NCBI RefSeq assembly: GCF_002270485.1
Contig: NZ_NQOG01000001.1
Coordinates: forward strand, 372,001-436,000
Length of the DNA stretch: 64,000 nt
Direction of reading: 5' to 3'
Source: Anaerostipes hominis (ex Lee et al. 2021)
Lineage (GTDB): Bacteria; Bacillota; Clostridia; Lachnospirales; Lachnospiraceae
Below the pieces are notes generated by a model, which made no database searches, had not been told where the DNA came from, and saw only the letters and a list, made by a program, of their open reading frames with translations. Numbering within the stretch: position 1 is the first letter of the stretch; every line of letters starts with the position of its first letter. The position numbers were made by a program, and so were the translations under genes. This document shows, piece after piece, positions 1,186-25,765 of the stretch.

Positions 1186-3033
1186 TTACTCCTTCCTGTA
1201 ATGATATGTATCTACCAAATCATGAACCAGTTCTTTCATATTCTCAGTTTCGGCATATGCAGCTTCATACAATTTTTTTAATGAATTCGATAATTTTTTT
1301 TCATCTATAACGATTGGTTTCCCTATTTTTATGAGCTTGTTAGGAGTCGTCTTTAGTCCTTCTTCTTCCATTAATAGCTCTTCAAATAATTTCTCTCCTG
1401 GACGCAGACCTGTAAATTCTATTTTAATGTCCACATTAGGAGTGTATCCAGAAAACTTAATTAGATTTGTTGCCAAATCCAAAATTTTAACTGGTTCTCC
1501 CATATCTAACACAAAAATCTCTCCTCCCTTTGCATAAGCTCCGGCCTGCAACACAAGTGAAACTGCTTCAGGAATTGTCATAAAATATCTTATAATATCT
1601 GGATGAGTGACAGTAACAGGGCCTCCCTCTTCTATCTGTTTTTTAAACAATGGAATTACTGAACCATTTGATCCAAGTACATTTCCAAAACGTACTGCCA
1701 CAAATTCTGTCTTTGATTTACATCCAAAAGCCTGTACAATCATTTCACAGATCCTTTTGGTTGCACCCATAATATTTGTAGGATTTACTGCCTTATCTGT
1801 AGAAATAAGAATAAATTTCTTTGCTTCATATTTATCTGCAGCCTTCGCAACATGAAAAGTTCCAAATACATTATTTTTTACAGCCTCATTGGGAGAGTCC
1901 TCCATTAAAGGAACGTGTTTATGTGCCGCTGCATGATATATGATATCAGGGTGATACTCTTTGAATATCTTGTCAATTTTCTTAGAATTTCTTACCGATG
2001 CAATCAGTACCTTTATATTTATTGTTGGATATTTACGAATTAATTCCTGTTGAATATCATATGCATTATTTTCATAAAAATCAATCAAAATTAGCTGTTT
2101 AGGGCCATGCTTTGCAATTTGACGGCATAATTCACTACCTATCGATCCTCCGCCTCCAGTCACCATAACAACTTTGTTATTTACATAGTCCATGATTTCT
2201 TCAGTGTTAATTTCAATTTGGTCTCTTCCCAAAAGATCCTCTATCTCAATATTCCTCAAGGCACTGACACTGACTTCATCATTCAATATTTTATACATAC
2301 CAGGCAGTACTTTAATTTTACACTTAGTTTTACTGCAAATATCAATGATTTTTTTTCTCTCCAAACCAGTTGCACTCGGAATAGCAATATAAATTTCATC
2401 AATTTCATATTTTTCAGAAGCTTCTAATATCTTCTCACGTTTTCCTACAACTTTTTTGCCTTGAAGATATCTTCCCTGCTTTGTTTCCATATCGTCAATA
2501 AAACAAACTACCGTCTTATTAAGTTTGTCCGATCCTGTAATTTCTTTTGCAATCTGATTTCCGGCTTCTCCAGCTCCTATGATCATAATGCGACTTGCAT
2601 CTTTACGAGATCTTCCAAATAGACCACGTTCCTGCAGATACAGGCGAATAAAACGGTAAAAAAAACGAATCCCCCCTGTTAAGGCAGTTAAAATTAAAGC
2701 AAAAATAAAATACCAGGACCTAAACATACGTTCCTCAAACAAAACAAACATAATCATATTGGAGGCAGACGAAATTATATTTGCCATAATAATGTTACGG
2801 AATTCATAAATACTAGCATAAAGCCAGAGACTTGTATAGAATTTCAGTAATATAAAAATAAACATTGTCAAAGACAAAATAATATAAATATATTTATTTA
2901 TTAAAGACAAATAATACGGTTCAATTTGCCCATTAAAACGTACCCACAAAGCTCCGTATGCTGCCAATATTACGGCAATTATATCAAATATAAATAACCC
3001 CATTCTGCGTATACTAATTGTTTTAAATATCAT
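1186..3033 (-). CDS. pglF: PglF/CapD-type UDP-GlcNAc 4,6-dehydratase (membrane-anchored)
   Basis: The family converts UDP-GlcNAc to the UDP-4-keto-6-deoxy sugar used for bacillosamine- or QuiNAc-type residues. Four N-terminal membrane segments (about residues 10-125) precede a first Rossmann region with GAGEAG (about 153-158). The catalytic SDR domain has TGGGGSIG (about 292-299), HAAAHKHVPLMED, and STDKAVNPTNIMGATKR (about 411-427). The Thr-Asp-Lys triplet and the Met replacing the usual Tyr are typical of large PglF/CapD dehydratases. I chose the ATG at 3033 because GGAGA lies 10 bases before it; the frame extends to a TTG at 3066. It is the last gene of the polysaccharide operon. With the PglE- and PglC-like genes at 17.7-19.5 kb it supplies the first step of a UDP-bacillosamine-type pathway. 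Confidence 0.88.
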   Translation of the reverse strand: MIFKTISIRRMGLFIFDIIAVILAAYGALWVRFNGQIEPYYLSLINKYIYIILSLTMFIFILLKFYTSLWLYASIYEFRNIIMANIISSASNMIMFVLFEERMFRSWYFIFALILTALTGGIRFFYRFIRLYLQERGLFGRSRKDASRIMIIGAGEAGNQIAKEITGSDKLNKTVVCFIDDMETKQGRYLQGKKVVGKREKILEASEKYEIDEIYIAIPSATGLERKKIIDICSKTKCKIKVLPGMYKILNDEVSVSALRNIEIEDLLGRDQIEINTEEIMDYVNNKVVMVTGGGGSIGSELCRQIAKHGPKQLILIDFYENNAYDIQQELIRKYPTINIKVLIASVRNSKKIDKIFKEYHPDIIYHAAAHKHVPLMEDSPNEAVKNNVFGTFHVAKAADKYEAKKFILISTDKAVNPTNIMGATKRICEMIVQAFGCKSKTEFVAVRFGNVLGSNGSVIPLFKKQIEEGGPVTVTHPDIIRYFMTIPEAVSLVLQAGAYAKGGEIFVLDMGEPVKILDLATNLIKFSGYTPNVDIKIEFTGLRPGEKLFEELLMEEEGLKTTPNKLIKIGKPIVIDEKKLSNSLKKLYEAAYAETENMKELVHDLVDTYHYRKE

Positions 3034-3084
3034 AAGTTTTCGTCTCCATTTTAACGTAACAGACAATTCATTATTCTAAAAATT

Positions 3085-7046: not shown

Positions 7047-7047
7047 T

Positions 7048-8031
7048 TCACTTCTCCATTCTTTGATCAGCTTCTTCAAGAATTTTAATAACACGAATTG
7101 CTGCATCTGCATCTGTATCTGATCTTGTTCCCATACATATACATTTTCTAAAATGCTCTAGACTATTATATAACGCATCAGATTGCTCTAATTTTGGAAT
7201 AATTCCTTCTCCACTACGCGTTTTTATTACATAATCTGAATATTCCATATCTTCAATTTTATCAAATCCTTTATCATATACAATCAGCTTATTTAAAACA
7301 TCCACATCATCATAAACTAGCATCTTCTTTGTCCCAGCTATAATAATTCTTCTTTCTTTTATCGGTGATACCCAGCTAGAAGTTACGTTAGCAATAAAAT
7401 TTTCGAATTCAATCGATAAAAAAGTAACTGAGGGTTTTTCAGAGTATGCTTTCTTACCAATCGACTTAATATTCTTAGGTATCGGCCCATTTGATAGATA
7501 ATCTATAATCGATAAATCATGCACACTTAAATCCCACATCGAACTAACATCATTCTTCAATTGACCCAAGTTTATCCTGGAACAATCATAGTAAATAATC
7601 TCTCCTAGTTCTCCAGAATCAATAATCTCTTTAATCTTTTTTATAACAGGATGATAAACCATGATATGATCAACATGAATTAAACAGTCTTTTTCATTGG
7701 CTATTTGCTTTAATTCTATTGCTTGTTTAACATTATCTGTAAATGGTTTTTCAACATACACATGTTTTCCGGCTAATAACACTCGTTTCGCTAATTCATA
7801 ATGGGCACTCGTCTCTACAGCCAAAGCAATCATATCTATTTCTTTATCATTAATTAATTCATCAAAATCTAATGAATATTCAACTGATTGCGCATATAGT
7901 TCCTTGGCCTTACTAAGTCTGCTTTCTCTCTTATCACATATAACCTTTAAATTATATTCAGAATTTATATTGAGATTTCTAGCAACATTAGGTCCCCAAT
8001 AACCGTATCCTACCAACCCAACAGTAATCAT
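7048..8031 (-). CDS. Gfo/Idh/MocA-family sugar oxidoreductase
   Basis: The product has 327 residues. The N-terminal Rossmann fold begins MITVGLVGYGYWGPNVARNL, and the family motif EKPF occurs in HVYVEKPFTDN (about residues 92-102). The catalytic region holds SSMWDLSVHDLSIIDYL, where the family usually has a general acid/base His or Lys. The family oxidises or reduces NAD(P)-linked sugars, including nucleotide sugars. It lies immediately upstream of the WbpE-like aminotransferase, so it could make the 3-keto substrate. The second oxidoreductase at 9098-10174 resembles WbpB/WlbA more, so the exact reaction of this one is open. It might act on another sugar of the repeat unit. Confidence 0.85.
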   Translation of the reverse strand: MITVGLVGYGYWGPNVARNLNINSEYNLKVICDKRESRLSKAKELYAQSVEYSLDFDELINDKEIDMIALAVETSAHYELAKRVLLAGKHVYVEKPFTDNVKQAIELKQIANEKDCLIHVDHIMVYHPVIKKIKEIIDSGELGEIIYYDCSRINLGQLKNDVSSMWDLSVHDLSIIDYLSNGPIPKNIKSIGKKAYSEKPSVTFLSIEFENFIANVTSSWVSPIKERRIIIAGTKKMLVYDDVDVLNKLIVYDKGFDKIEDMEYSDYVIKTRSGEGIIPKLEQSDALYNSLEHFRKCICMGTRSDTDADAAIRVIKILEEADQRMEK

Positions 8032-10203: not shown

Positions 10204-11100
10204 TTAACGCATTGTCTTTAAATGTTTTATAAACTTATCATGATCTATAGCTAAATTCCCTGTCACGCTTGCCCCTTTTTCTACATTTTTGGAGACAACT
10301 GCTCCCATATTTATGCTCGCTCCTTCTCCAATTTCTAACAACTGTTTAATTGTAGAAGAAAAGCCAACCCAACAGTTATCCTTAATAACTACTCTACCTC
10401 CAATTCCCGTGTTTGCAACTATCATACAACATTTTCCTATCTTAGCTCCATGTCCAACATGAACTAAATTGTCTATTACTGTATGTTCTTCTATTACTGT
10501 ATCATCCCACGGGTATAAAGCTTTATCTATCGCTGTATTTTGTTGTATTTCTACATTCTTTCCTATCACCACTCCACCAACATGTTTGACTACAAAAGTC
10601 CTGTCAGACTCTCTCTTTACTTCAAATCCTTCACCACCAATTACTGATCCAGATCTTATAACTGCACCATCTTCTATAATTACGTTCTCTTTTATTGATA
10701 CAAAAGATTCAATTGTTACATTTTCCCCAATTATAACATTTACATCTGATATTTCCGAAAGTTTGCTTATATTACTTCCCACCCCTATTTTTGTTTTCTC
10801 TTTTCTCCTTTGGTAAGAATAATTATCTTTATTAGCAAGATAATTATGAATTTTGAAAAAAGTCAGTCTCGGTTCTTTTACTATGCATTTATTGTTAAAA
10901 TTAATCTTATCGCAAAGTTCGGCATTGGTCAAAATAAGTGATACATTCTTCGAATATTTCTCAATAAAACGTTCCTCATCTATAAATGTACAAAAATTTT
11001 TTATTCCTGTTTCTTTTGAAACCCCCAATGTATCAAATTCCATTTTTCCAATATATTTTGCCTGTATGTTCAACTCTTTTAAAATTGCCTTCAGATCCAC
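10204..11100 (-). CDS. LpxD-like hexapeptide-repeat acyltransferase
   Basis: The product has 298 residues. An N-terminal domain of about 95 residues (GKMEFDTLGVSKETG, LILTNAEL) is followed by left-handed beta-helix repeats: IGENVTIESFVSIKENVIIEDGAVIRSGSVIGGEGFEV, then IDNLVHVGHGAKIGKCCMIVANTGIGGRVVIKDN. This is the LpxD architecture, with the VHVGH catalytic-His region. LpxD itself acylates UDP-GlcN derivatives for lipid A, which a Gram-positive does not make. Here the enzyme more likely N-acylates the 3-amino group made by the WbpE-like enzyme (the WbpD role) or another amino sugar. The GTG start at 11100 directly follows the upstream TAA, with AAGGAG 6 bases before it. Confidence 0.85.
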   Translation of the reverse strand: MDLKAILKELNIQAKYIGKMEFDTLGVSKETGIKNFCTFIDEERFIEKYSKNVSLILTNAELCDKINFNNKCIVKEPRLTFFKIHNYLANKDNYSYQRRKEKTKIGVGSNISKLSEISDVNVIIGENVTIESFVSIKENVIIEDGAVIRSGSVIGGEGFEVKRESDRTFVVKHVGGVVIGKNVEIQQNTAIDKALYPWDDTVIEEHTVIDNLVHVGHGAKIGKCCMIVANTGIGGRVVIKDNCWVGFSSTIKQLLEIGEGASINMGAVVSKNVEKGASVTGNLAIDHDKFIKHLKTMR

Positions 11101-12295: not shown

Positions 12296-12988
12296 TTATA
12301 TTCGCCTTAAATATTGATCTAATTTTTTGTCTAGCATTAACTCTTTTTTATTATCCATAAGAGTATTATAATTATCCGCATCTTTTATTTCCTTAAGGCT
12401 AAATGTGCCATTTAAAACATTTTCTACATTTTCAATCAACATCCTTATTTCAAGTTCTTCCATTTTCTGACTAATATCATACCAGCTGTCATCTCTTTCA
12501 ATCTTAATTTTCTTTATATCTATGATCTTACCAACGTCTATCTTTTTATCTATAAAGTGTGCCGTGACTCCTAATTCTTGACCATTATAAACCGCCCATT
12601 TAATTGCATCTAATCCTCTTACATCAGGAATAATACCCGGGTGCAGATTTAAAATCCCTATTTTTACACTATCTATAATAAAATCACTTAAAATTCTCGC
12701 TCCTGCAACAATTCCTAATTCGATATTTTCGCGTAGAAGAATATTTTTACATGTTTCAGAGTTATGTGGGCATACAAAATAGTCTATTCCAAATCTATCA
12801 CATATTTCTTTGGTTTCTAAAAATGGCTGTTTTTTTACTTTAATTCTTTTAATAGACTTTGACATATTTAATTCTACTCTAGGGGCAGCAATAACACATT
12901 TGATCCGGTAACCCTTAAGAATTAAATTAGACAAAAACGTTTGACTTTTCATATGCAAAAAATCATAACTAAATATTGCAATATTCAT
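12296..12988 (-). CDS. Formyltransferase-fold enzyme, probable sugar N-formyltransferase
   Basis: The product has 230 residues. NLHPGIIPDVRGLDAIKW (about residues 118-135) supplies the Asn and His of the formyltransferase catalytic triad. GVTAHFIDKKIDVGKII (about 146-162) supplies the catalytic Asp, in the same order as in PurN and Fmt. The protein lacks the C-terminal tRNA-binding domain of Fmt, and its C-terminus is short and Lys-rich. Similar proteins in polysaccharide loci transfer formyl from N10-formyltetrahydrofolate to amino sugars such as Qui4N or Rha4N. The 4-amino sugar made by the PglE-like enzyme or the 3-amino uronate are candidate acceptors. A 73-base gap separates it from the next gene downstream. 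Confidence 0.78.
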   Translation of the reverse strand: MNIAIFSYDFLHMKSQTFLSNLILKGYRIKCVIAAPRVELNMSKSIKRIKVKKQPFLETKEICDRFGIDYFVCPHNSETCKNILLRENIELGIVAGARILSDFIIDSVKIGILNLHPGIIPDVRGLDAIKWAVYNGQELGVTAHFIDKKIDVGKIIDIKKIKIERDDSWYDISQKMEELEIRMLIENVENVLNGTFSLKEIKDADNYNTLMDNKKELMLDKKLDQYLRRI

Positions 12989-13005: not shown

Positions 13006-14319
13006 TTATAAAATTTCTATATTTTTACGATTTATAATATTTTTCATTGCATTCTTGGTATCAAAAACCCACTTAGCATTTTCCTGAACCATTTGATAAT
13101 CAATTGAACTATGAGAAGCAGTGATCATGACCAAATCATATGAAGAAATAATATTTTTATCAATCGAATTCAATCCACTGTGAAAGTCTCCTTTATCTTT
13201 GTACTCAGGAATAAATGGATCATAATAATCAACTAGCGCCCCTTGTTTTTTTAATATATTTATAATATCAATGGCTGGGCTTTCTCTATAATCATCAATA
13301 TCTTGTTTATATGCAACGCCCATAACCAATATCTTTGACCCATTTAGAGCCTTTTGATCTTTATTTAAGATCTTACTAGCTCTTTCAACACAGTATTCTG
13401 GCATTTTGTCATTAATCATCATTGATGCCTCAATCATTGATGTATGGAAACCAAATTCTCTGGCTTTCCAAGACAAATAGTACGGATCAAGAGGTATACA
13501 ATGCCCTCCTAAGCCTGGTCCAGGATAAAAGGCCTGAAATCCATAAGGTTTTGTCTTTGCCGCGTCAACAACCTCCCACAGACTAATCTGCATTTTATTA
13601 CACAAAATTGCGAGTTCATTTACTAAACCGATATTTATATTTCTATATGTATTTTCCAATATTTTTTCCATTTCTGCAACTGCAGGAGAAGATACTTCGT
13701 AAATATCACCATCAAGTACCACTCTATACATTGCAGAAATAACCTCTTTTGCATCTTCTCCCACTGCTCCAACAACTTTTGGAGTGTTTTTTGTTTTAAA
13801 TTGTTTATTCCCTGGATCTACGCGTTCTGGAGAAAATCCTAAATAGAACTCCTTTCCACAGCTTAATCCAGATCCATTTTCTAATAATGGTTTTATTAAT
13901 TCTTCTGTTGTACCTGGATAGGTTGTTGACTCAAGAACTACCATTGTTCCCTTTTTCATATATTTAGCTATCTCCACTGTTGAATTCTTTACATAGCTAA
14001 TATCTGGTTGCTGATGTTCATCTAATGGAGTAGGGACACAAATCGCAATGAAATCAACATCCTCTATAAAAGAAAAATCTGTAGTCGCTCTTAACTTTCC
14101 CTCTTTTACCAGTTTCTCTAAATCCTCATTTACTACATCTCCAATATAGTTTTCGCCCCTATTTACCATATCAACTTTTTCTGACTGAACATCAAACCCA
14201 ACCGTTTCAAATCCTGCCTTTGCCTTTTCAACAGCTAAAGGTAATCCAACGTACCCTAAACCAATAACACCAACTTTTATCTTTCTATCATTAATCTTTT
14301 GTAAAATTTTACTTTTCAA
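13006..14319 (-). CDS. wbpA: UDP-N-acetyl-D-glucosamine 6-dehydrogenase (WbpA-like)
   Basis: The product has 437 residues and belongs to the UDP-glucose/GDP-mannose dehydrogenase family. GVIGLGYVGLPLAV (17-30) binds NAD. CVPTPLD (94-100) and LESTTYPGTTEE follow. PGPGLGGHCIPLDPYYLSWKA contains the catalytic Cys at about 274. VMGVAYKQDIDDYRESPA marks the C-terminal domain. The extended N-terminal helix and GGHCIPLDPYYL are typical of the WbpA branch that oxidises UDP-GlcNAc to UDP-GlcNAcA in two NAD-dependent steps. The start overlaps the upstream glycosyltransferase stop by four bases (ATGA). It feeds the WbpB/WbpE-like enzymes of the operon. Confidence 0.9.
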   Translation of the reverse strand: MKSKILQKINDRKIKVGVIGLGYVGLPLAVEKAKAGFETVGFDVQSEKVDMVNRGENYIGDVVNEDLEKLVKEGKLRATTDFSFIEDVDFIAICVPTPLDEHQQPDISYVKNSTVEIAKYMKKGTMVVLESTTYPGTTEELIKPLLENGSGLSCGKEFYLGFSPERVDPGNKQFKTKNTPKVVGAVGEDAKEVISAMYRVVLDGDIYEVSSPAVAEMEKILENTYRNINIGLVNELAILCNKMQISLWEVVDAAKTKPYGFQAFYPGPGLGGHCIPLDPYYLSWKAREFGFHTSMIEASMMINDKMPEYCVERASKILNKDQKALNGSKILVMGVAYKQDIDDYRESPAIDIINILKKQGALVDYYDPFIPEYKDKGDFHSGLNSIDKNIISSYDLVMITASHSSIDYQMVQENAKWVFDTKNAMKNIINRKNIEIL

Positions 14320-15554
14320 TTTTCTATTGCCTCCTTCATAATTTTTCTCAATTTCTTAGTCAACTCATAAAATGAAAATTTTTCAGATGTCTTTATGCAA
14401 TTTTCACAATATTCTGTATAATCTAATTTACTCAAATTATAAACTGTCTTAACAGCCTGAAAAATATTTTCATTCACAAAAGCACAATTATCTCTTGTTA
14501 AATAATTATATCCAAAATCTGCATTTAACATAATGGGTTGGCCTGATGCTAAATATTCAAAAGATTTGTTTAAACTCATTCCATACTTATACAAATCAGA
14601 TTTAGCAATAAAAATTAAGTTTACAGTGCTTCTACTCAAGATATAAGGAATATATTCCTTCCCCACTTTACCTTTGAAAATTATATTATCCAGCTTTTTG
14701 TCCTTAGCAACTCTCTCTAATTCTTCTCTCTGTGACCCTTCTCCAAAAATCAAAAATAAAATATCTTGCATCCCTTCTTCTTTACACTGTTCAGCAACTT
14801 TAATTAACAAATGTAATTGATTTGCTTGTCCAATTGAACCTGTATAAACTATTTTAAATTTATTTGACTCCAGATCTCTATCAAAATAAATTTTATTTTC
14901 CTTATTATTTCTAAATACTTCTAGATCAACACCGTTGTTAATATATTCAACTTTATGAAGAGGAACATATTTTTCCCACTTCATATCTTTAATATATTGC
15001 TTCCCACCTTCCATGGTGAAAATCACTTTCTTTGCATTTTTGTATGTATATAATTCTAGTTTTAATAGAAAATTATGTAACAATCCATTTCTTTTTATTT
15101 TTCCAAACTCAACCAAGGTTAATGGCCATATATCACGAACTTCACATATGCATGGAATATTATATTTTTTGCCTAAATAAATGCCTGCGACTAATGTTAA
15201 AGGATGGACTGATGATGCTAAAATAATGTCAGGTTTTTTACCATTCTTTATCTTTTGCTTTCCTACTTTTTTTACATTTTTCCAATATAAAATCATATTT
15301 AATATTCTTGAGATACCGTTACCTTCATATGGTTTCGTTTTCACGAAGATATAAGGTATGTTATCAGCACCAACTTTTTCACAACTTATGCCCTTTTTTA
15401 TTTCTATATCTTCTCCTTTATTATGGCCATAATTTGAACAAAAAATATTTACCTCATCTCCATTCCTAATGAGATATTTTGCGAATCCATGATGTCTTCC
15501 TCCCCCGTCAAAATACATATCTGTAGCATAATGATTTAAAATCCATATTTTCAT
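14316..15554 (-). CDS. WbuB-like GT4 glycosyltransferase
   Basis: The product has 412 residues with a GT-B fold. MKIWILNHYATDMYFDGGGRHHGFAKYL is typical of the WbuB-like GT4 group, which often acts on amino-sugar acceptors. LTLVAGIYLGKKYNIPCICEVRDIWPLTL is the conserved acceptor-domain helix. IVYTGSIGQANQLHLLIKVA and NLIFIAKSDLYKYGMSLNKSFEYLASGQPIM lie in the donor domain. It probably adds the second sugar, onto the bacillosamine-type residue placed by the PglC-like enzyme (inference from order and family). The nearest GGAGG is 14-15 bases before the ATG, longer than usual. No alternative start looks better. Confidence 0.87.
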   Translation of the reverse strand: MKIWILNHYATDMYFDGGGRHHGFAKYLIRNGDEVNIFCSNYGHNKGEDIEIKKGISCEKVGADNIPYIFVKTKPYEGNGISRILNMILYWKNVKKVGKQKIKNGKKPDIILASSVHPLTLVAGIYLGKKYNIPCICEVRDIWPLTLVEFGKIKRNGLLHNFLLKLELYTYKNAKKVIFTMEGGKQYIKDMKWEKYVPLHKVEYINNGVDLEVFRNNKENKIYFDRDLESNKFKIVYTGSIGQANQLHLLIKVAEQCKEEGMQDILFLIFGEGSQREELERVAKDKKLDNIIFKGKVGKEYIPYILSRSTVNLIFIAKSDLYKYGMSLNKSFEYLASGQPIMLNADFGYNYLTRDNCAFVNENIFQAVKTVYNLSKLDYTEYCENCIKTSEKFSFYELTKKLRKIMKEAIEN

Positions 15555-15583
15555 AAACTTCTACGTAAGCCTCCCTAATATGT

Positions 15584-16543
15584 TCAATCTATAATTTTCA
15601 TATCCAAATACTTCATCATATATACAGATTCTTTATAGTTGCCTATCTCTATCTCATTCTCTTCTTCTAACAAATTATTAAGCATATATTTTGGGAAATT
15701 ACAACCACACAAATATGCATGTGGATATCCTCCTCCAAACCTTGGATTCACTTCGGATATATAATAATTTCCATTTCTCTCAAACACATCAATATCAATT
15801 TGACCAATGAATCCTGCAGTTTCAACGAATCTTTTTATCAGATTAAATAACTTTTTATCTTTAACCGATTTTGATTTATCTGTTTCTCCAGCTCTCATTA
15901 ATATCTTTTCTTTTATAAAAATGGAGATAACTTTTTTTGATAAGGTATCTATATAAACATCGCAGCCGAACTCTTTACCTTCCATAAATTCCTGAACAAT
16001 TAAATTGTGATGTTTATTTAAAACATACTTAAGATCACTTATGTTTTCTATTTTTTGAATATCAATGCTACAACTCCCCCTTCGTGGCTTCACAAAAACA
16101 GGAAACTGTAATTCACTTTCAGCAATTGCATTTTTCACATTTTCTATGCCACAAAAAGTTTTAACAGTAGGGAAGTGATTACTTTTACAGAATTTATAAA
16201 ATTTAAGTTTATCAAAACACATATCAACTTCTTCATAATTAGATAAGAACAATACAATATTACTTTTTTGAAATAGCTCTTTATTTTCAGCTAATAATGA
16301 AAGTTCAGGATCAATCAATGAAAATATTCCATCAATATTCTCTTGCTTACATATATCCAATATAACTTTTAAATATTCCGGATCGTCAATACGTGGAACA
16401 ATGTAATAACCATCTGCTTCATACAAAGATGGCGCTAATGGATCACAATCTGTGCATATAATTTTCCCTTCATCTCCCAATTCTTGCTTGAAAAATTGAA
16501 TTAACTTATTTCTAGTTCCCGTACTCAATGCTAAAATATTCAT
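15584..16543 (-). CDS. ATP-grasp ligase (CarB-like), polysaccharide-locus type
   Basis: The product has 319 residues. A pre-ATP-grasp domain of about 115 residues is followed by the ATP-grasp core. FPVFVKPRRGSCSIDI (147-162) has the ATP-binding Lys at about 152. IVQEFMEGKEFGCDVY follows, and ISEVNPRFGGGYP (262-274) carries the Mg-binding Glu and Asn. The family joins a carboxylate, activated as acyl phosphate, to an amine or other nucleophile. Its place directly after the PLP decarboxylase and PglC-like genes, in a locus with amino sugars but no PglD acetyltransferase, suggests that it links an amino acid or similar acid to a sugar amine. This is inference; no substrate is visible. GAGGAAATAAG precedes the ATG. 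Confidence 0.82.
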   Translation of the reverse strand: MNILALSTGTRNKLIQFFKQELGDEGKIICTDCDPLAPSLYEADGYYIVPRIDDPEYLKVILDICKQENIDGIFSLIDPELSLLAENKELFQKSNIVLFLSNYEEVDMCFDKLKFYKFCKSNHFPTVKTFCGIENVKNAIAESELQFPVFVKPRRGSCSIDIQKIENISDLKYVLNKHHNLIVQEFMEGKEFGCDVYIDTLSKKVISIFIKEKILMRAGETDKSKSVKDKKLFNLIKRFVETAGFIGQIDIDVFERNGNYYISEVNPRFGGGYPHAYLCGCNFPKYMLNNLLEEENEIEIGNYKESVYMMKYLDMKIID

Positions 16544-16552
16544 CTTATTTCC

Positions 16553-17731
16553 TCATTTACTACCTAAATATTCAGTAACATTCCACTTTTTTCTCACACA
16601 TTCAATATCACAATTAATTTTTTTTAAATATACTGCAGGAAAATATTTAATAAACAATGGGCTCAAACACATCGTATACGAACCAACTTTATAATATTTA
16701 ATTAAATCTCCTTCTTGCAGCAACTTATAATTTTTCAGATGAAAAATTCTATCATGTTCCATGCAAGTAAAACCTGAAATGATCTGATTATCAACCACCT
16801 CATTATGACTATTACTCTCAATATCATAAAAATACTTTGTTTTTGTCATAAGAGGATCTATATCATTTCTACTTCCATCTGTTGTTATAAAAATATTTCT
16901 ATTTGTTTTTTTGACATCGATCACTGATGTTACAAACGAGACAGGCGATGCAATTATAGACGCACCTGGTTCCACTATAAGAGTAATTCCATGAGAATTC
17001 ATAAAATCACCTAAAACACACTCCACTTGTTCTATATAATCTCTATACGAAGGTTTATCCGTCAGTCCGCCAAAAAAACCTCCACCAATATCAACATATT
17101 CCAAATCTAAATTATATCTTTCAATTACACTTCGAGCTGTTTTTGCAATAGCTTTATAAATATTTAGACTTCTAGTCTTACTACTAGTATGTAAATGTAT
17201 TCCTGTAATTTTTATATTCTTTTGGCAATTTAAAAGATCTATAGCTCTGTCCAATTCCTTATTATGTAAACAAAAACCAAACCGTCCTCCTTCATCTCCA
17301 CATGCGCTTTCTAAAGGACACATTTTCTCTATGTCAAAATTAATTCTAATCCCAATTTTATACTTCTTATTTTTATTTAGACAATCCAACCACCGGATTT
17401 CCCTTGTTGTTTCTATGTTAACAATAGCTCCCGATTCTATGGCATCTAGAAATGTTTTTTGGTCTTTCATGGGCCCATTATATATAATATTTTTTCTAAG
17501 ATAACCTAATGTAACTGCTAAATTATATTCATCGTAAGAAACAACTTCTGCAAAACAATTATGATCTCTCATATATTCACATAAATAAGGGAGAGAGTTT
17601 GTTTTAAAAGAATATCCAATTTTCCAGTTATCAAACTTCTGTGATAATGCTTTTTGCATATCCCGTATGTTATGATCTAGTTCCTTCTCATCAATCATAA
17701 AATATGGTGTCTCTAATATTCTCCTATCCAT
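16553..17731 (-). CDS. Fold-III PLP-dependent decarboxylase (LysA/ornithine decarboxylase family)
   Basis: The product has 392 residues. IGYSFKTNSL carries the PLP Lys at about 43, where LysA has Y-x-x-KAN. HLHTSSKT (179-186), VDIGGGFFGG (213-222) and VEPGASI (253-259, phosphate-binding EPG) are the other fold-III signatures. GFTCMEHDR places the family catalytic Cys at about 323, but the usual ES-G-D after it is replaced by MEHD, so the substrate may differ from diaminopimelate or ornithine. The start overlaps the PglC-like stop by 8 bases. The ATP-grasp gene follows after 9 bases. The pair may produce and then attach an amino-acid-derived group to the polysaccharide precursor (inference). 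Confidence 0.82.
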   Translation of the reverse strand: MDRRILETPYFMIDEKELDHNIRDMQKALSQKFDNWKIGYSFKTNSLPYLCEYMRDHNCFAEVVSYDEYNLAVTLGYLRKNIIYNGPMKDQKTFLDAIESGAIVNIETTREIRWLDCLNKNKKYKIGIRINFDIEKMCPLESACGDEGGRFGFCLHNKELDRAIDLLNCQKNIKITGIHLHTSSKTRSLNIYKAIAKTARSVIERYNLDLEYVDIGGGFFGGLTDKPSYRDYIEQVECVLGDFMNSHGITLIVEPGASIIASPVSFVTSVIDVKKTNRNIFITTDGSRNDIDPLMTKTKYFYDIESNSHNEVVDNQIISGFTCMEHDRIFHLKNYKLLQEGDLIKYYKVGSYTMCLSPLFIKYFPAVYLKKINCDIECVRKKWNVTEYLGSK

Positions 17732-18347
17732 TACCTTTAAAATCCTCCATTGTTTCCGATGAGTCTGAACTTATTCCTTCTTTTTTTAAGACTGCTTTTA
17801 CAGTATACAAAAGAATTTTACAGTCAAATAAAAAACTAATTTTGTGCACATATTGGATGTCCTTTTTAAATCTTTCATCCCAGCCCAAACAGTTTCTCCC
17901 ATTCACTTGCGCCCATCCCGTTAAGCCTGGTCTTACATTATGACGTTTCTTTTGCTCCTCATTATATAAGGTAATATATTCGACTAATAACGGCCGTGGC
18001 CCTACTAGACTCATTTCACCTTTTAGAATGTTAAATAATTCTGGTAATTCATCTAAACTGGTAGCTCTTAACTTCTTACCGAATTTTGTCAATCTGGCTT
18101 CATCAGATAACAATTCTCCTTTAGAGTCTTTTTTATTGGTCATTGTTCTAAATTTGTATAATTTAAATATTTTTTCATTCAATCCAGGCCTACTTTGCGT
18201 AAATATTACGGGCTTTCCAAGTTTCACTCTTACCAACACTGCAACCAGTAAAAAAACAGGAAATAGAACACAAATAGCAATTATTGATACTGTAAAATCA
18301 AAAAAGCGTTTTATATATTTTACATATACTTTTTGGCTACTCTTCAT
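17724..18347 (-). CDS. pglC: PglC-like phosphoglycosyltransferase (initiating sugar transferase)
   Basis: This is a small monotopic sugar transferase of 207 residues. A single N-terminal re-entrant hydrophobic segment (about residues 15-42) is followed by FTQSRPGL, KLYKFRTM and SLDELPELFNILKGEMSLVGPRP, with the catalytic Asp-Glu dyad at about 99-100. RPGLTGWAQVNGRN closes the domain. The lack of the large N-terminal domain of WbaP or WcaJ, and the pglE neighbour, point to the PglC type, which moves a phospho-bacillosamine-type sugar from UDP to undecaprenyl phosphate. The ATG at 18347 overlaps the aminotransferase stop as ATGA, with AAGGA upstream; an earlier in-frame ATG at 18359 has no good ribosome site. 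Confidence 0.9.
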   Translation of the reverse strand: MKSSQKVYVKYIKRFFDFTVSIIAICVLFPVFLLVAVLVRVKLGKPVIFTQSRPGLNEKIFKLYKFRTMTNKKDSKGELLSDEARLTKFGKKLRATSLDELPELFNILKGEMSLVGPRPLLVEYITLYNEEQKKRHNVRPGLTGWAQVNGRNCLGWDERFKKDIQYVHKISFLFDCKILLYTVKAVLKKEGISSDSSETMEDFKGNG

Positions 18348-19492
18348 TTTCCAAAACATCCTTTAACAATTTCACATACCTTATTTAAATCATCTATTGT
18401 CATTTTTGTATCGGACGGCAAACATATACCCCTTTCAAATATTGATTGTGCTGTTGCCTCATTATTTACGTAATCAAATTTCTCAAAATACGGTTGCATA
18501 TGCATTGGTTTCCATATTGGCCTAGCCTCTATATTCTCGTCTTCCAATGCAAGCTGAATATCCAAAGGGGTAATCAGACATGTTTTTGACATAATAAATG
18601 AAGATAGCCAACAATTACATTCTTGATATGCCCCATGTATTGGCATCATTGATATATCTGAAATGCCTCTAAACGATTCTTCATAATAATGAAAAATCTC
18701 CCTCTTCTTCTCTACCCTTTGCCCGAGAACCTTTAATTGTCCTCTTCCGATTCCTGCTACGATGTTACTCATCCGGTAATTATATCCTAATTCTTTATGT
18801 TGATAGTAACGCTCAAGTTCTCTAGCCTGTGTTGCCCAAAATCTTGCTTTTATAGCCATGTGTTCTGCATTTTCCGTATTACACAAAAGCATTCCTCCAC
18901 CAGAGGATGTAATAATCTTATTCCCATTAAAAGAAAGAATTCCATAATCTCCAAATGTCCCTGTCATTTTCCCTTTATATAATGACCCAAGACTTTCTGC
19001 TGCATCTTCCAAAATTGGAGCACCATACTTCCTACAGATCTCCCGAATTTCATCTATTTTAGCTGGAATTCCATACAAATGAACTACAATAACTGCCTTT
19101 GGTTTTAATCCTTTTGTCTCATAATGCTTAAATGCTCTCTCAAGAGCATCCGGACTCATATTCCAACTTTCTTTTTCACTATCAATAAACACCGGAATCG
19201 CATTTTGATAAATAATTGGATTAGCGCTTGCAGAAAAAGTCAAACTCTGGCAGAAAACAAGATCTCCTTGTTCCACACCTAAGGCTTTTAACCCTAAATG
19301 CAGGGCAGCCGTTCCTGAACTTAAAGCAACTGCATCATTTGCTCCAGTTACTTCACAAATTTCCTGCTCAAATTTATTTACATTCTCCCCAAGAGGAGCA
19401 ATCCAATTGGTATCAAACGCTTCTTTTATGTACTCCATTTCATATCCTTCATCGCTCATGTGTGGTGACGACAAAAAAATCCTTTTATTCAT
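18344..19492 (-). CDS. pglE: PglE-like UDP-4-amino-sugar aminotransferase
   Basis: The product has 382 residues and is in the DegT/DnrJ/EryC1 PLP family. FLSSPHMSDEG and DTNWIAPLGENVNKFEQE open the protein. SSGTAALHLGL (58-68), LEDAAESLGS (161-170) and FNGNKIITSSGGGML (188-202, PLP Lys at about 192) are present. The C-terminal ARPIWKPMHMQPYF matches Campylobacter PglE closely from memory. PglE aminates the 4-keto sugar made by PglF to give UDP-4-amino-4,6-dideoxy-GlcNAc. AAGGAG stands before the ATG. Transcription enters it from the Wzy-like gene and passes into pglC. No PglD-type acetyltransferase of about 200 residues is in the window. Confidence 0.9.
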   Translation of the reverse strand: MNKRIFLSSPHMSDEGYEMEYIKEAFDTNWIAPLGENVNKFEQEICEVTGANDAVALSSGTAALHLGLKALGVEQGDLVFCQSLTFSASANPIIYQNAIPVFIDSEKESWNMSPDALERAFKHYETKGLKPKAVIVVHLYGIPAKIDEIREICRKYGAPILEDAAESLGSLYKGKMTGTFGDYGILSFNGNKIITSSGGGMLLCNTENAEHMAIKARFWATQARELERYYQHKELGYNYRMSNIVAGIGRGQLKVLGQRVEKKREIFHYYEESFRGISDISMMPIHGAYQECNCWLSSFIMSKTCLITPLDIQLALEDENIEARPIWKPMHMQPYFEKFDYVNNEATAQSIFERGICLPSDTKMTIDDLNKVCEIVKGCFGK

Positions 19493-21122: not shown

Positions 21123-23102
21123 TTAGAGTTTAATTTTTTTAACTTTCTCGTTTCCGCTTCGGTCTACCACATAAACCGTATAATACCTGCCCCTCTTCGC
21201 CTGAAAGCTGGCACTGCCTTTCTTATTCTTCAGCCTGCTTCCTTTTTTTCCTTGCTTAAAATAAGACGCAGATTTTTTCCCTTTTGCATATCTGAATTTT
21301 AATGTCTTTTTGCTCTCGTCTGAGGCTTTTATCCTAACTTTTGCTTTTGAACGGCTCTTTTTATATACTTTGACATTAAGCTTCGGCGGCTTCCCGGCAG
21401 TGATCTTTACGGTCTTCACTGTCTGGTTCCCTGCGCTGTCTCTGGCAAAAACCGTATAATACCCGGTCTTTTTTACTTTGAGTGTCCCGTTTTTTACGTT
21501 ATATCCCTTTTTCCCGTTGGAAAAGTAAGCGGAAGTCTTCTTTCCCGTTATGTATCTAACTGCAGCAACTGTTGTACTGCCTCTCTTTTTGGCACTGACC
21601 TTTGCCAGAGAATAATTCTTCTTCTGTGTTGTTTTAACTGTAATATATGGTGGATAGTAATTGGAATTCACAGTCTTTTCAGCATTCAAATATCCGCCGG
21701 ACGCCACTTTTCCATTTAAGCTGCTGATTCTGGTTGCTCCGCGCTTCAACGCATTTTTCGCCATAGCAGGGGTTATTCCCGGATACTTTGCGTAGATCAA
21801 AGCGGCCGTACCGGTAACCATAGGCGCTGCCATAGAGGTTCCGGTCTCAACGATCCCCCGTTCATTAACACCCAGGCTGAATATGTCCGTCCCCGGCGCT
21901 GCCAACAGAACACTTTTCTTTCCATAGTTTGAATAGGATTCTAAGTAACCTGTGTAATCAAGATTTGCAACCGATATCACGTTGCTGTAATTATAGCTGG
22001 CCGGATAAGCAGGATACCTGTCATTGTTGTTTCTCTCATTTCCCGCAGCGCAGATAAACAGCATATCTTTACTATCTTTTATCACATCCCTGAGCATCTT
22101 ATCGTTCTGGTAGGATCCAAAGCTAAAATTACATATCTTGGCCCCCATCTTTTTGGCATATTTTATGCCCTTGATGACACTCAAGGTTGTTCCTTCTCCT
22201 TTTCTCCCGCCCAGAACCTTGATGGTCATAAGCTTTACATTGGTGCCCGATGCAATCCCCGCTATTCCATAGCCATTGTTGCGCACAGCGGCGATAGTCC
22301 CCGCTCCGTGGGTCCCATGGTCATCCTCATAATTATTGTAGCTATAAGCCCTGTTTGAATAGACTTTGTTATTGTTATTATAAAAATTCCAGCCATAAAT
22401 ATCGTCTTTGTAGCCGTTTTTATCACTGTCTTTCCCGTTTTTCTTTTCTTTCGGATTCTTCCACATAACGGACTTAAGGTCAGTACTGGTGTAGTCAACT
22501 CCGGTATCAATATTGGCCACAATGACCTTACTCGTATTTTTTTTGTTCAGCTGTTTCCAGAGATTCTTTACATTAATATCCAATCCCTTTTTCTGTGGAA
22601 TCGTAACACCCTGTCCCCCACCCTGAGTGCGGACAAAGTCTGTAAGGTTTGTTCCATAGTTATAGAGCCCCCACTGTGCATAAAAGAAAGGATCGTTAAC
22701 ACCAGCCGTCTTCATGGCGCGCTCTCTCTCTGATACTCTGCCGTTCCCGTCTACCAGCCGATAGACATAGTTTGGCTGTATATATTCTACGTCATCATTT
22801 TTGTTCAGTTCTTTCACTGCGGCTGCCGTCTCTTTTTTCGTGTCTGCCTTTACCACCGCTACCGTCCCCGTTACCTGTTCGGCTTCTCCTGGTGTTTCCT
22901 CTATGATATTTTCCTTTTTTGTCTCGGATACACCGTCTTTGAATTTTACAATGACCTCTTTTGTCTTATATTCATTTGGGTCTGTCACTGATGCCGCGGT
23001 ACTCTCAGAATTATCGGCCCGGACTGGCTTTGTCCCTGGCTGAATGAAAATAAGGCCCCCTGCAAGACAGATTGCAGTCAATGTACTTATGGCTCTTCTC
23101 AT
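21123..23102 (-). CDS. Secreted subtilisin-like serine peptidase (S8) with two Ig-like C-terminal repeats
   Basis: The product has 659 residues. It has a signal peptide (about 1-29), then an I9-type propeptide (about 46-116, KEVIVKFKDG to YIQPNYVYRL). The catalytic domain shows Asp in VANIDTGVDYT (about 199), His in DDHGTHGAGT (about 262), Asn in CAAGNERN (about 355) and Ser in GTSMAAPMVTG (about 423). Two Lys-rich repeats of about 85 residues follow; each ends in a GYYTV/RYYTV, R-D/DRSGN-type motif. No sortase or S-layer signal is visible, so the basic repeats may hold it to anionic wall polymers (inference). The ATG at 23102 overlaps the YfhO stop as ATGA, with GAGGA upstream. Confidence 0.9.
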   Translation of the reverse strand: MRRAISTLTAICLAGGLIFIQPGTKPVRADNSESTAASVTDPNEYKTKEVIVKFKDGVSETKKENIIEETPGEAEQVTGTVAVVKADTKKETAAAVKELNKNDDVEYIQPNYVYRLVDGNGRVSERERAMKTAGVNDPFFYAQWGLYNYGTNLTDFVRTQGGGQGVTIPQKKGLDINVKNLWKQLNKKNTSKVIVANIDTGVDYTSTDLKSVMWKNPKEKKNGKDSDKNGYKDDIYGWNFYNNNNKVYSNRAYSYNNYEDDHGTHGAGTIAAVRNNGYGIAGIASGTNVKLMTIKVLGGRKGEGTTLSVIKGIKYAKKMGAKICNFSFGSYQNDKMLRDVIKDSKDMLFICAAGNERNNNDRYPAYPASYNYSNVISVANLDYTGYLESYSNYGKKSVLLAAPGTDIFSLGVNERGIVETGTSMAAPMVTGTAALIYAKYPGITPAMAKNALKRGATRISSLNGKVASGGYLNAEKTVNSNYYPPYITVKTTQKKNYSLAKVSAKKRGSTTVAAVRYITGKKTSAYFSNGKKGYNVKNGTLKVKKTGYYTVFARDSAGNQTVKTVKITAGKPPKLNVKVYKKSRSKAKVRIKASDESKKTLKFRYAKGKKSASYFKQGKKGSRLKNKKGSASFQAKRGRYYTVYVVDRSGNEKVKKIKL

Positions 23103-25765
23103 ACTCTTTTCCTCTTCTTTCTGGATACTACAATATAAATTATCAAGATGATCCCTGCAGCTGTACTGACAGCAACCCCCGGGATCAGCCACGGAGTTGT
23201 GTAATTTAACGTGATCTTGTGTTCACCCGGCGTAAGGACTAACCCCATATACATACCGTTGGTTTTTAATATTTTGGTCTTCCTGCCGTCTACTTTCGCT
23301 GACCATCCCTTAGAATATGCCACCGGAATACACAACAATTTTGTTTTCCTGGTCTTGATCTCCCCTGAAAATACATTGTCTTGATAGGTAATATTCTGAA
23401 GTGAATTCTGCTCTCTGTTTTTCAGCTCTTTCTGCATCTTTTCAGGATTTACAGAGATCAGAGAGATGGACTCTACACTGTATGTTCCGGAGCTTAAAAA
23501 ATTCACTTCAAAGTCCCCGTCACCGGTAATTCTCATTAGATAATCATGGCGTCCGAAATAGTAGGAACTCATCTTATCCTGAATATAAATATGCTGTTCC
23601 TTTGAGCCGTCCATGACATCGATCCCTTTGTTGCCTTTTTTCCCTTTTAAGGCAATATCTGAGATGTTGGATTTGTTTTTTGTCAAAGGGCTGTACCGGA
23701 GATTCTTAATATAGATGTAATTCTCCTTTTGGGAATTCAGTTTGACACGATACTTTTTGGTCTTTCCTCCCTTATTGACCGACAGGCTTTGTCTGCCGGA
23801 AAGTCGTTTCTCTCCAACATGTACAGAAGAACGTTCCTGCTTCTTAAGGCCTTCTACACCCTCATTCAGAACCGCCGACTTGATCATCGCCTGCTCACGT
23901 TCTGCCCCGTTCATGGAGTCGTACTCCTTTTGGCTCATCCATGAATCATACGTATACCCAAACGGAAGGGCATATGGGTTTTCATAGAGCCTGACCCCAT
24001 CTGTCTCATGGAGCAGACGGCAGCCCTTCAGGTTTTCATTTTCAGGCACCATAATATATTTGACCGAGGCAAGGCTTAACAGCCCCTGTCTCAGATCCAC
24101 ACCATGATACTTGTCAGCATACTGCATGCCCAACGTTTCATAGCTGCGCACTGTCTCCATTGTCTCCTTCGGGATAATGCTGTAGTAAGCGCTGACTGTA
24201 TTCAATTCGTCCAGAACACCATAATTGTGGAACCTCTGAGTTTCATTGTGGACTCTGACCATCTGACCTGCAGCCTGCTTTTTCAGCTGTTTATTTTCAT
24301 CAGAAGAAAGCAGTCTCAAGGCTTCTCCATGGTTTAAAAACTCACTGATATAATTTCTTCCGCCGTCACCGAAACGGTAAAATCCATGGACCCCGATGCT
24401 GATCACAATCAGCACTGAGATAACAATTTTGGTAGCTATATTCTTACTGTCCATGTTTTTCCACTGAAAAAACAGTAACACCAGGTAAAACAAAAAGAGA
24501 AAAATACCGGCTATATAGGCTCCATCATTTTTAAACACATCCGGCTTGCTCAGCTCAGCCACTCTGATGATCAGATTATAAATAGAGATGCCGATCAGGA
24601 TCCCCATGATCTGGCGCTTGGACATATGAAAAAGTCTCGGATACATCTCTGCCACAAGCAGTGCAATGATGAACGTAAAGACAAAACTCCAACGGTTTGT
24701 GACGTAGGAAAAACCGTTAAAGATAAATCCGAACACTGGAAGTGCCAGGAATATGATACAGCCCAAAAAGGCCAGTTTGTATTTTTTATGTTTCATCCGG
24801 CGGGAATACATCAAAAACAGAACAACGATGCCTGCAATGGGGATGAAACCTACATTGGTCGACTGTCCGCTGTTTCCGTATCCCACAAAATTCTCCAGGA
24901 ATAAAATATAATACTTGAACGGATAAGCGATCAGATTGTGGACCTGCCCGCCTCCGCGGCCGTTTCCTAAAAAGCCATAGACCGCAGGCAGAAGAATCAC
25001 TGCTGAAAGAGCCACTCCCAGAATATAATATCCTGCGAATCCTCTGAGCAGCACGAGAAAGTTTTTAAGCCTGTCCTCGGCATAGTATTGATAAAACCGG
25101 ATCAGTGCATAGATGACTGTAAAAATCGTCAACATGTATAAGAAATAAAAGTTACTCATCGATGCCACCGCAGTGACTGCGATAAACAGGTAAGGACGTT
25201 CTTTTTTATAGATCTTTTCAACGCCCAGGCACAGCAGTGGAAAATAAATCATCGGATTAATAAAAAATGGATGCCTGAGTCCTGAACGGAAAATAAAACC
25301 GCAGAACACATACACAAGAGCCCCCAGCACAGAAGCGAAATTATTTTTGTTCATCTTTCTGCAATATAACATAAAGGCTGTTCCCGCTAAAAACATCCGC
25401 AGAAGGATCATAAAATTATACATAACTTCCGTATGTTTCATCGGCACGAAGATATACAGAAGATTCAGCGGATCACCGATGGCATAATAATTTAACGTGG
25501 ATAAAATATCTCCTCCGTAGCCAAGATTCATATTCCACATAGGAAGTGACGGATGCCCTAAAAAAATGCTTTTCACTGCTTCCCGCAGATAATGACCCCA
25601 GTAAGCCAGCGACTCAAAATGCTGGGTCAATCCGTCTTCCACGCCTGCGGCCCAGATAAACGATTTTCCTTCTGCGATAAACGGATAAAAAGCCGCAAAA
25701 CACATTACAATAAATAATATGAAATATAGCAAATAATATTTCTTTGTACTCCTTTGTGATGTCAT
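23099..25765 (-). CDS. YfhO-family membrane glycosyltransferase-like protein (copy 1)
   Basis: The product has 888 residues with about a dozen membrane segments in the first 480 residues. A large extracytoplasmic domain (about 480-845) and one C-terminal helix before KKRKRV follow. The first outer loop carries GDGLTQHFESLAYWGHYLR-type residues (here VEDGLTQHFES), and LGYGGDILSTLNYYAIGDPLN follows; both are hallmarks of the YfhO (GT-C-like) family. In Bacillus and Listeria YfhO proteins transfer sugars from undecaprenyl phosphate onto lipoteichoic acid, with a CsbB-type GT2 and a GtcA flippase. Both partners occur nearby (29821-30747, 28624-29049). It is a paralogue of the gene at 25782-28427, 16 bases upstream. 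Confidence 0.85.
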   Translation of the reverse strand: MTSQRSTKKYYLLYFILFIVMCFAAFYPFIAEGKSFIWAAGVEDGLTQHFESLAYWGHYLREAVKSIFLGHPSLPMWNMNLGYGGDILSTLNYYAIGDPLNLLYIFVPMKHTEVMYNFMILLRMFLAGTAFMLYCRKMNKNNFASVLGALVYVFCGFIFRSGLRHPFFINPMIYFPLLCLGVEKIYKKERPYLFIAVTAVASMSNFYFLYMLTIFTVIYALIRFYQYYAEDRLKNFLVLLRGFAGYYILGVALSAVILLPAVYGFLGNGRGGGQVHNLIAYPFKYYILFLENFVGYGNSGQSTNVGFIPIAGIVVLFLMYSRRMKHKKYKLAFLGCIIFLALPVFGFIFNGFSYVTNRWSFVFTFIIALLVAEMYPRLFHMSKRQIMGILIGISIYNLIIRVAELSKPDVFKNDGAYIAGIFLFLFYLVLLFFQWKNMDSKNIATKIVISVLIVISIGVHGFYRFGDGGRNYISEFLNHGEALRLLSSDENKQLKKQAAGQMVRVHNETQRFHNYGVLDELNTVSAYYSIIPKETMETVRSYETLGMQYADKYHGVDLRQGLLSLASVKYIMVPENENLKGCRLLHETDGVRLYENPYALPFGYTYDSWMSQKEYDSMNGAEREQAMIKSAVLNEGVEGLKKQERSSVHVGEKRLSGRQSLSVNKGGKTKKYRVKLNSQKENYIYIKNLRYSPLTKNKSNISDIALKGKKGNKGIDVMDGSKEQHIYIQDKMSSYYFGRHDYLMRITGDGDFEVNFLSSGTYSVESISLISVNPEKMQKELKNREQNSLQNITYQDNVFSGEIKTRKTKLLCIPVAYSKGWSAKVDGRKTKILKTNGMYMGLVLTPGEHKITLNYTTPWLIPGVAVSTAAGIILIIYIVVSRKKRKRV

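What the first reader, a model, noticed from the sequence alone, without database searches (positions are those of the whole stretch)
15584..19492. Bacillosamine-type initiation module without PglD, with a PLP decarboxylase and ATP-grasp ligase in its place
The sequence shows PglE-like, PglC-like, fold-III decarboxylase and ATP-grasp genes coupled in that order (overlaps of 4 and 8 bases, then a 9-base gap), and PglF at 1186-3033. Canonical N,N'-diacetylbacillosamine needs the PglD acetyltransferase, of which I see none. An ATP-grasp ligase can form an amide to the free 4-amino group. The decarboxylase lacks the usual residues after its catalytic Cys, so it may supply an unusual amine or acid. 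The proposal is that the first sugar carries an amino-acid-derived acyl group.
Basis: partly seen in the sequence, partly recalled or inferred. Interest (0 to 1): 0.7.

Follow-up and report, generated by a model that had tools for sequence, protein, structure and literature searches.

The report
Sugar starter with swapped acyl-tailoring enzymes
Where bacteria normally acetylate the first sugar of a surface polysaccharide, this gene set, found again in several bacterial phyla, has a ligase and a decarboxylase that probably attach a small amino-acid-derived group instead.

Summary
In detail: PglE-like, PglC-like, fold-III decarboxylase (DC) and ATP-grasp genes are coupled at 15584-19492, with PglF at 1186-3066. 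The own genome has no PglD over the family cut-off.

The unit is widespread. Of 80 DC loci (best of 271), 32 have PglC and this ATP-grasp type within 1.5 kb, in Bacillota, Bacteroidota and Pseudomonadota; no PglD was seen in the 80. In 150 same-family genomes all 9 with DC have the ATP-grasp, against 3 of 141 without. DC is fused to PglC in one locus and to PseF in seven. It also occurs with PseC- or WecE-type aminotransferases.

Most likely the ATP-grasp amidates the sugar's new 4-amine and DC makes or trims the acyl group. DC's nearest solved relative, N-citrylornithine decarboxylase, acts on a ligated amino acid. The acyl group is unknown; an omega-amino acyl is my guess.

Replacing the acetyltransferase by an ATP-grasp is known (Neisseria PglB2); the dedicated decarboxylase is the new part. 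Against: no genome-level anti-correlation with PglD, and pseudaminic-type loci often keep a PseH-like gene.

The parts
1186..3066 (-). PglF-like membrane-anchored UDP-GlcNAc 4,6-dehydratase
   Evidence: Pfam Polysacc_synt_2 410 bits plus CoA_binding_3
18344..19492 (-). PglE/LegC-like DegT aminotransferase, proposed to make UDP-2-acetamido-4-amino-2,4,6-trideoxyglucose
   Evidence: DegT_DnrJ_EryC1 310.8 bits; LegC-family model 371 bits, under its 420 cut-off; nearest solved chains 1o61 and 4ztc, E about 1e-94
17724..18359 (-). PglC-like monotopic phosphoglycosyl transferase
   Evidence: Bac_transf 215.9 bits; nearest solved relative diNAcBac-1-phosphate transferase 8g1n
16553..17731 (-). fold-III PLP decarboxylase (DC), proposed to make or trim the acyl group
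   Evidence: Orn_Arg_deC_N 101.9 bits; nearest solved sequence and fold 7kh2, N-citrylornithine decarboxylase; PLP Lys43, His181, Cys323, Glu325, Asp327 in 44 of 44
15584..16543 (-). ATP-grasp carboxylate-amine ligase (type A), proposed to amidate the sugar's 4-amine in place of PglD
   Evidence: PylC-like_N and ATP-grasp_3; Lys112, Lys152, Glu264, Asn266, Arg268 invariant in 39 of 39; model pLDDT 94.5, best fold match 2pn1, then among others PylC and L-amino acid ligases

Best explanation
The genes form an initiation cassette that puts a non-acetyl acyl group on the 4-amine of a bacillosamine-type first sugar. PglF and PglE make UDP-2-acetamido-4-amino-2,4,6-trideoxyglucose from UDP-GlcNAc. 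The ATP-grasp enzyme activates a small carboxylic acid and couples it to the free 4-amine, the step that PglD would do with acetyl-CoA. The decarboxylase makes or trims that acid. Because an amide to the sugar needs a carboxyl group left over, its substrate should be an amino-dicarboxylic acid (aspartate or glutamate type), free or already attached through its side chain, which would leave an omega-amino acyl group such as beta-alanyl or 4-aminobutyryl. PglC then loads the sugar on undecaprenyl phosphate. Shown: gene content, order, conservation, co-occurrence, no PglD seen at these loci, conserved catalytic residues. Inferred: acceptor position, acyl donor, order of ligation and decarboxylation.
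For: Order PglE-PglC-DC-ATP-grasp recurs: of 80 DC loci, 42 have type-A ATP-grasp and 34 PglC within 1.5 kb (32 both), 0 have PglD over 100 bits. Genome co-occurrence of DC and ATP-grasp 9 of 9 against 3 of 141. One PglC-DC fusion, 694 aa (L145) and seven PseF-DC fusions tie DC to sugar-handling enzymes. DC and an ATP-grasp also lie beside PseC (L073: PseC 453 bits over its 423.5 cut-off, then DC and type-A ATP-grasp) and WecE (L048: WecE 629 bits over 434.85, then a different ATP-grasp and DC). In 10 loci a PLP fold-II enzyme akin to D-cysteate sulfo-lyase / D-cysteine desulfhydrase stands next to the ATP-grasp, in 9 of them between it and PglC, the place of DC, as expected for an exchangeable acid-supplying position. 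Precedents (passages read): Neisseria PglB2, an ATP-grasp/phosphoglycosyl transferase that makes a glyceramido sugar and excludes PglB (PMC11130364); FigC/FslC decarboxylates a ligated amino acid, and BtrK Glu-S-carrier (PMC7857480).
Against: No biochemistry and no polymer structure. Genome-level anti-correlation with PglD is not seen (6 of 44; 27 of 150). In group B loci (DC in pseudaminic-type loci) a PseH-like GNAT is often kept: over its cut-off in 8 of 36 genomes, many more just under, and 10-15 kb from DC in 7 of 11 stretches fetched to look and in L078. So DC plus ATP-grasp is there an addition, or the GNAT serves another amino sugar of the locus; not resolved. Two PglC loci have both PglD and a weaker type-A ATP-grasp (L129, L137). 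The window operon also has a LpxD-like acyltransferase (10204-11100) and a formyltransferase (12296-12988) that could act on an amino sugar. In 18 of 30 further ATP-grasp loci neither DC nor the fold-II enzyme lies within about 1.5 kb, so DC is not always next to the ligase.
Confidence: 0.6

Rival explanations
1. The decarboxylase makes a free amine and the ATP-grasp couples it to the carboxyl of a uronic acid made by the UDP-sugar dehydrogenase of the same operon (13006-14319).
For: The dehydrogenase is two genes from the ATP-grasp and of the UDP-GlcNAc/ManNAc type; ATP-grasp plus amine would give a uronamide.
Against: Only 11 of 45 PglC/ATP-grasp-type DC loci show a dehydrogenase over 100 bits (many loci are cut by contig ends), whereas a 4-aminotransferase or PglC partner recurs; L048 and L073 have DC and ATP-grasp directly at an aminotransferase.
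Confidence: 0.12
2. The first sugar is ordinary diNAcBac, acetylated by the LpxD-like hexapeptide protein at 10204-11100 or an unrecognised acetyltransferase, and DC plus ATP-grasp decorate another sugar.
For: The LpxD-like protein is in the operon and matches the C-terminal half of the PglD model (68.3 bits).
Against: It matches LpxD best (146 bits; 4e75) and lies with a Gfo/Idh, a DegT and a UDP-sugar dehydrogenase, which suggests a 3-amino sugar; a relative of it is seen in only 2 of the 80 DC loci.
Confidence: 0.13
3. The ATP-grasp attaches a plain hydroxy acid such as glycerate, as proposed for Neisseria PglB2, and the decarboxylase does something unrelated.
For: PglB2 precedent; type-A ATP-grasp occurs without DC at some PglC loci.
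Against: DC and type-A ATP-grasp co-occur in 9 of 9 DC genomes and are within 1.5 kb in 42 of 80 DC loci; DC is fused to PglC in one locus and to PseF in seven.
Confidence: 0.12

Closest known systems
Neisseria PglB2 (phosphoglycosyl transferase fused to ATP-grasp, makes glyceramido-acetamido trideoxyhexose)
   Same: ATP-grasp takes the place of the acetyltransferase at the phosphoglycosyl transferase; mutually exclusive alternatives (PMC11130364, passages read)
   Different: No decarboxylase is described there in the passages read; in the window ATP-grasp and PglC are separate genes. A PglC-ATP-grasp-HAD fusion does occur in the family (L142)
N-citrylornithine decarboxylase FigC/FslC
   Same: Nearest solved sequence and fold; fold III; C-M-x-H-D after the catalytic Cys
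   Different: 27% identity in the fold alignment; siderophore pathway; the Arg after E-P/L-G is lost here and an invariant Arg187 is present
BtrK of butirosin synthesis
   Same: Fold-III decarboxylase acting on an attached amino acid (as told in PMC7857480); solved relative. Its pairing with an ATP-grasp ligase, BtrJ, is recalled, from no call
   Different: Acts on a carrier-protein thioester in an antibiotic pathway; I noticed no carrier protein among the ORFs read (not searched by profile)
Campylobacter-type diNAcBac pathway (PglF, PglE, PglD, PglC)
   Same: PglF, PglE and PglC types present
   Different: No PglD over cut-off; DC and ATP-grasp instead
Clostridioides difficile type B flagellin peptidylamido-glycan
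   Same: Mutants of an ATP-grasp gene lack the amino-acid-type cap on an aminodeoxyhexose (PMC5207246, PMC5207245, passages read)
   Different: Cap is made of Ala, Gly and taurine on Fuc3N at the chain end; the word decarboxylase does not occur in PMC5207246

Membership tests
Bacillosamine-type initiation module | PglF-type dehydratase, PglE-type aminotransferase and PglC-type transferase in one locus | tested here: met
   substrate specificity itself not tested
Canonical diNAcBac pathway | PglD-type acetyltransferase (TIGR03570 over cut-off) | tested here: not met
PglB2-type ATP-grasp swap | ATP-grasp enzyme at the PglC-type transferase where PglD would be | tested here: met
   Window order; 28 of 30 further type-A loci have PglC within about 1.5 kb; exclusivity with PglD 0 of 10 against 8 of 20. 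Sequence orthology to PglB2 itself was not tested
ATP-grasp carboxylate-amine ligases | Conserved nucleotide- and metal-binding residues and fold | tested here: met
   Lys112, Lys152, Glu264, Asn266, Arg268 invariant (their roles are recalled); fold matches 2pn1, PylC, L-amino acid ligases and carboxylases
Diaminopimelate decarboxylase (LysA) | TIGR01048 over cut-off and substrate-end residues (Arg of R-P, Glu after Cys) | tested here: not met
   142 bits against 297.9; Asp/Asn at the Arg position in 44 of 44, Met/Leu/Val/Ile after Cys; a better LysA candidate, 273 bits and itself under the cut-off, lies elsewhere. That these residues bind the substrate end is recalled
Fold-III decarboxylases of attached amino acids (FigC, SbnH, BtrK) | Catalytic Lys and Cys, and activity on an attached amino acid | tested here: inconclusive
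   Lys43 and Cys323 in 44 of 44; nearest solved relative 7kh2; activity not testable here

The most novel reading that the evidence does not exclude
A mobile, phylum-crossing cassette ligates a dicarboxylic amino acid to the 4-amine of a nucleotide sugar and then decarboxylates it in place, giving an omega-amino acyl sugar with a free positive charge at the first sugar of the polymer; the same decarboxylase family serves bacillosamine, pseudaminic and Fuc4N-type sugars through different ATP-grasp ligases.
Probability: 0.22. Interest if true: 0.8.

Novelty: new variant of a known kind. Interest (0 to 1): 0.6.

Why it matters
It turns an apparent gap in a bacillosamine pathway into a recognisable, exchangeable acyl-tailoring slot next to PglC, with a decarboxylase that I did not find described in this role. 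If true, many bacteria start surface polysaccharides with an amino-acid-derived, possibly positively charged sugar, which bears on antigenicity and on how phosphoglycosyl transferases tolerate their substrates. It also gives a direct assay: two soluble enzymes and one UDP-sugar.

Tried and rejected
That DC plus ATP-grasp simply replaces the acetyltransferase in pseudaminic loci too: weakened, since PseH-like GNATs lie 10-15 kb from DC in 7 of 11 stretches fetched and in L078; they stand near a second aminotransferase gene, which is WecE-type where I tested it (L078), so it is open which sugar they serve. That DC is the organism's LysA: unlikely. That genome-level absence of PglD tracks the cassette: not seen (the other 36 DC genomes were not searched for PglD). 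A first ORF filter hid DC in L039, L040 and L046, so the tree labels these three rows noDC wrongly; counts were redone without the filter. That tree shows the DC label clustered, 4 changes against 13.5 in shuffles, with those three errors in it. An early test, 0 of 35 against 9 of 42 PglD, p 0.003 (counts typed), compares loci of different taxonomic breadth and I do not lean on it. That one DC serves the PglC-linked ATP-grasp in trans: plausible for 18 of 30 loci with neither DC nor fold-II enzyme within about 1.5 kb, not shown.

Literature: searches for ATP-grasp with bacillosamine gave 0 papers, with pseudaminic acid 3 (passages of two read), diaminopimelate decarboxylase with bacillosamine 1 (listing only), phosphoglycosyl transferase fusions 10 (listing only), omega-amino acyl terms nothing apt in the 12 of 65 listed, five-term search nothing apt in the 12 of 24 listed. 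PMC13317340 (pseudaminic acid in Clostridium; term search and passages) has no 'decarboxylase' or 'grasp'. The library lacks most subscription papers.

Full report
What is there. The transferase's nearest solved relative is the diNAcBac-1-phosphate transferase 8g1n; the aminotransferase's nearest are 1o61 and 4ztc (that these are Campylobacter PglE is recalled). The own genome holds seven partial NeuD/PglD matches, none over the cut-off. The family of the window's genome is probably Lachnospiraceae: contigs of three same-family genomes have exactly the lengths of named Lachnospiraceae contigs (48288, 29221 and 115435 bases).

The unit is conserved. A profile of nine decarboxylases found 271 relatives in one genome per species; the best 80 were kept. 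By HMM scan of six-frame fragments, 42 of 80 have the type-A ATP-grasp within 1.5 kb of DC, 34 a PglC, 32 both, 0 a PglD over 100 bits anywhere in the locus. The loci reach up to 10 kb each side, but only 48 of 80 have full flanks, and the shortest is 3.5 kb. I sorted them as 45 PglC/ATP-grasp type (A), 29 with pseudaminic synthase (B), 6 others (C; one, L085, looks like a B locus cut by the contig end). The 32 with both neighbours include Bacillota, Bacteroidota and Pseudomonadota (Psychrobacter); Fibrobacter locus L055 has the ATP-grasp at DC and a PglC match of 223 bits in the looser scan.

Co-occurrence. In 150 same-family genomes, 9 have DC (E at most 1e-40) and 12 the ATP-grasp (E at most 1e-50); all 9 are among the 12 (Fisher p 2.7e-12; relatedness not corrected). 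Of the 36 DC genomes outside the PglC type (as sorted by eye before the recount; L073 was later counted as A) 28 have the type-A ATP-grasp, in 30 places: within about 1.5 kb, 28 have PglC, 3 DC, 0 PglD. In 9 of these 30, and in L138, a PLP fold-II enzyme lies beside the ATP-grasp, in all but L201 between it and PglC; the L138 copy best fits D-cysteate sulfo-lyase at 176 bits, under the 450 cut-off. So the slot is exchangeable.

Relation to PglD. One search gave 45 PglC matches in the 150 genomes, the window's among them; I fetched regions around the other 44. Within 2.5 kb of PglC in these 44, 8 have PglD, 15 a type-A ATP-grasp over 150 bits (2 of them with PglD), 3 DC; one more, L124, has PglD at 3.9 kb. 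Among the 30 loci with PglC of at least 300 bits, window included (its PglC scores 328, its ATP-grasp 479), a strong ATP-grasp (at least 430 bits) and PglD do not coincide: 0 of 10 against 8 of 20, p 0.029 (0.033 without the window; thresholds chosen after seeing the scores). At whole-genome level no anti-correlation appears.

Other contexts. In group B, L078 has PseB and PseC over their cut-offs, then an ATP-grasp of another type, PseG, PseI, PseF and DC. Seven loci carry PseF fused to DC. A PseH-like GNAT stands 10-15 kb from DC in 7 of 11 fetched stretches and in L078, near a second aminotransferase; the one GNAT tested by NCBIfam scores 94.1 against a cut-off of 93.1 (L175), and the one such aminotransferase tested is WecE-type (L078, 652 bits). 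So group B does not prove replacement of PseH. L073 has PseC-DC-type-A ATP-grasp; L048 WecE-ATP-grasp-DC, with no match to my PseH profile among the ORFs of its 13 kb.

Enzymes. DC keeps the PLP lysine, His, Cys and Asp of fold III in 44 of 44, with Glu325 and Arg187 invariant, Asp/Asn where diaminopimelate decarboxylases have Arg, and no Arg after E-P-G in the 43 of 44 residues listed. Its model (pLDDT 92.7) is closest to N-citrylornithine decarboxylase, an enzyme shown to act after ligation and not as an ornithine decarboxylase (PMC7857480, passages and two sections read). The ATP-grasp model matches 2pn1, of no stated function beyond its automatic name, then a biotin carboxylase domain, PylC and an L-amino acid ligase.

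Mechanism. The missing PglD, the known PglB2 swap, and the recurring grouping of aminotransferase, ATP-grasp and DC make amidation of the 4-amine the best reading. Fusions to PglC and PseF and the kinship to FigC lean towards decarboxylation of a sugar-bound amino acid; loci with the ATP-grasp but no adjacent DC lean towards a free acid. I cannot decide between them.

Novelty. ATP-grasp in place of the acetyltransferase is known from Neisseria. I found no paper with the decarboxylase in this role, in an open-access library.

Noticed in passing
window 5928-7112, 7048-8031, 10204-11100, 13006-14319: A second amino-sugar set: UDP-sugar dehydrogenase, Gfo/Idh oxidoreductase, DegT aminotransferase and LpxD-like acyltransferase, suggestive of a 2,3-diamino uronic acid.
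   Followed up: partly
window 12296-12988: A formyltransferase-domain protein (Formyl_trans_N, 66.6 bits), possibly N-formylating an amino sugar.
   Followed up: no
L138 6241-7254; also L185, L186, L188, L190, L191, L193, L194, L201, L213: A D-cysteine desulfhydrase/D-cysteate sulfo-lyase-like PLP enzyme beside the ATP-grasp, mostly in the decarboxylase's slot; substrate unknown.
   Followed up: partly
L142 5525-7774; L123 3600-5216: PglC-ATP-grasp-HAD fusion (750 aa), and an ATP-grasp-HAD fusion (539 aa) after PglC; the HAD part might remove a phosphate from the acyl donor.
   Followed up: no
L139 6054-7019; L140 4525-5679; L162 4787-5620: Other small-acid enzymes directly after PglC: a D-2-hydroxyacid dehydrogenase, a class I aminotransferase, a HpcH/HpaI aldolase-like protein.
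   Followed up: no
L039 17063-18241: A second fold-III decarboxylase-like protein in a cassette locus; a protein that looks like an acyl-CoA/AMP ligase stands in sister locus L046 at 15384-16928 (by eye, no family search).
   Followed up: no
window 23099-25765 and 25782-28427: Two similar large membrane proteins in tandem upstream of the operon, next to a subtilisin-like protease at 21123-23192 (by eye, no family search).
   Followed up: no
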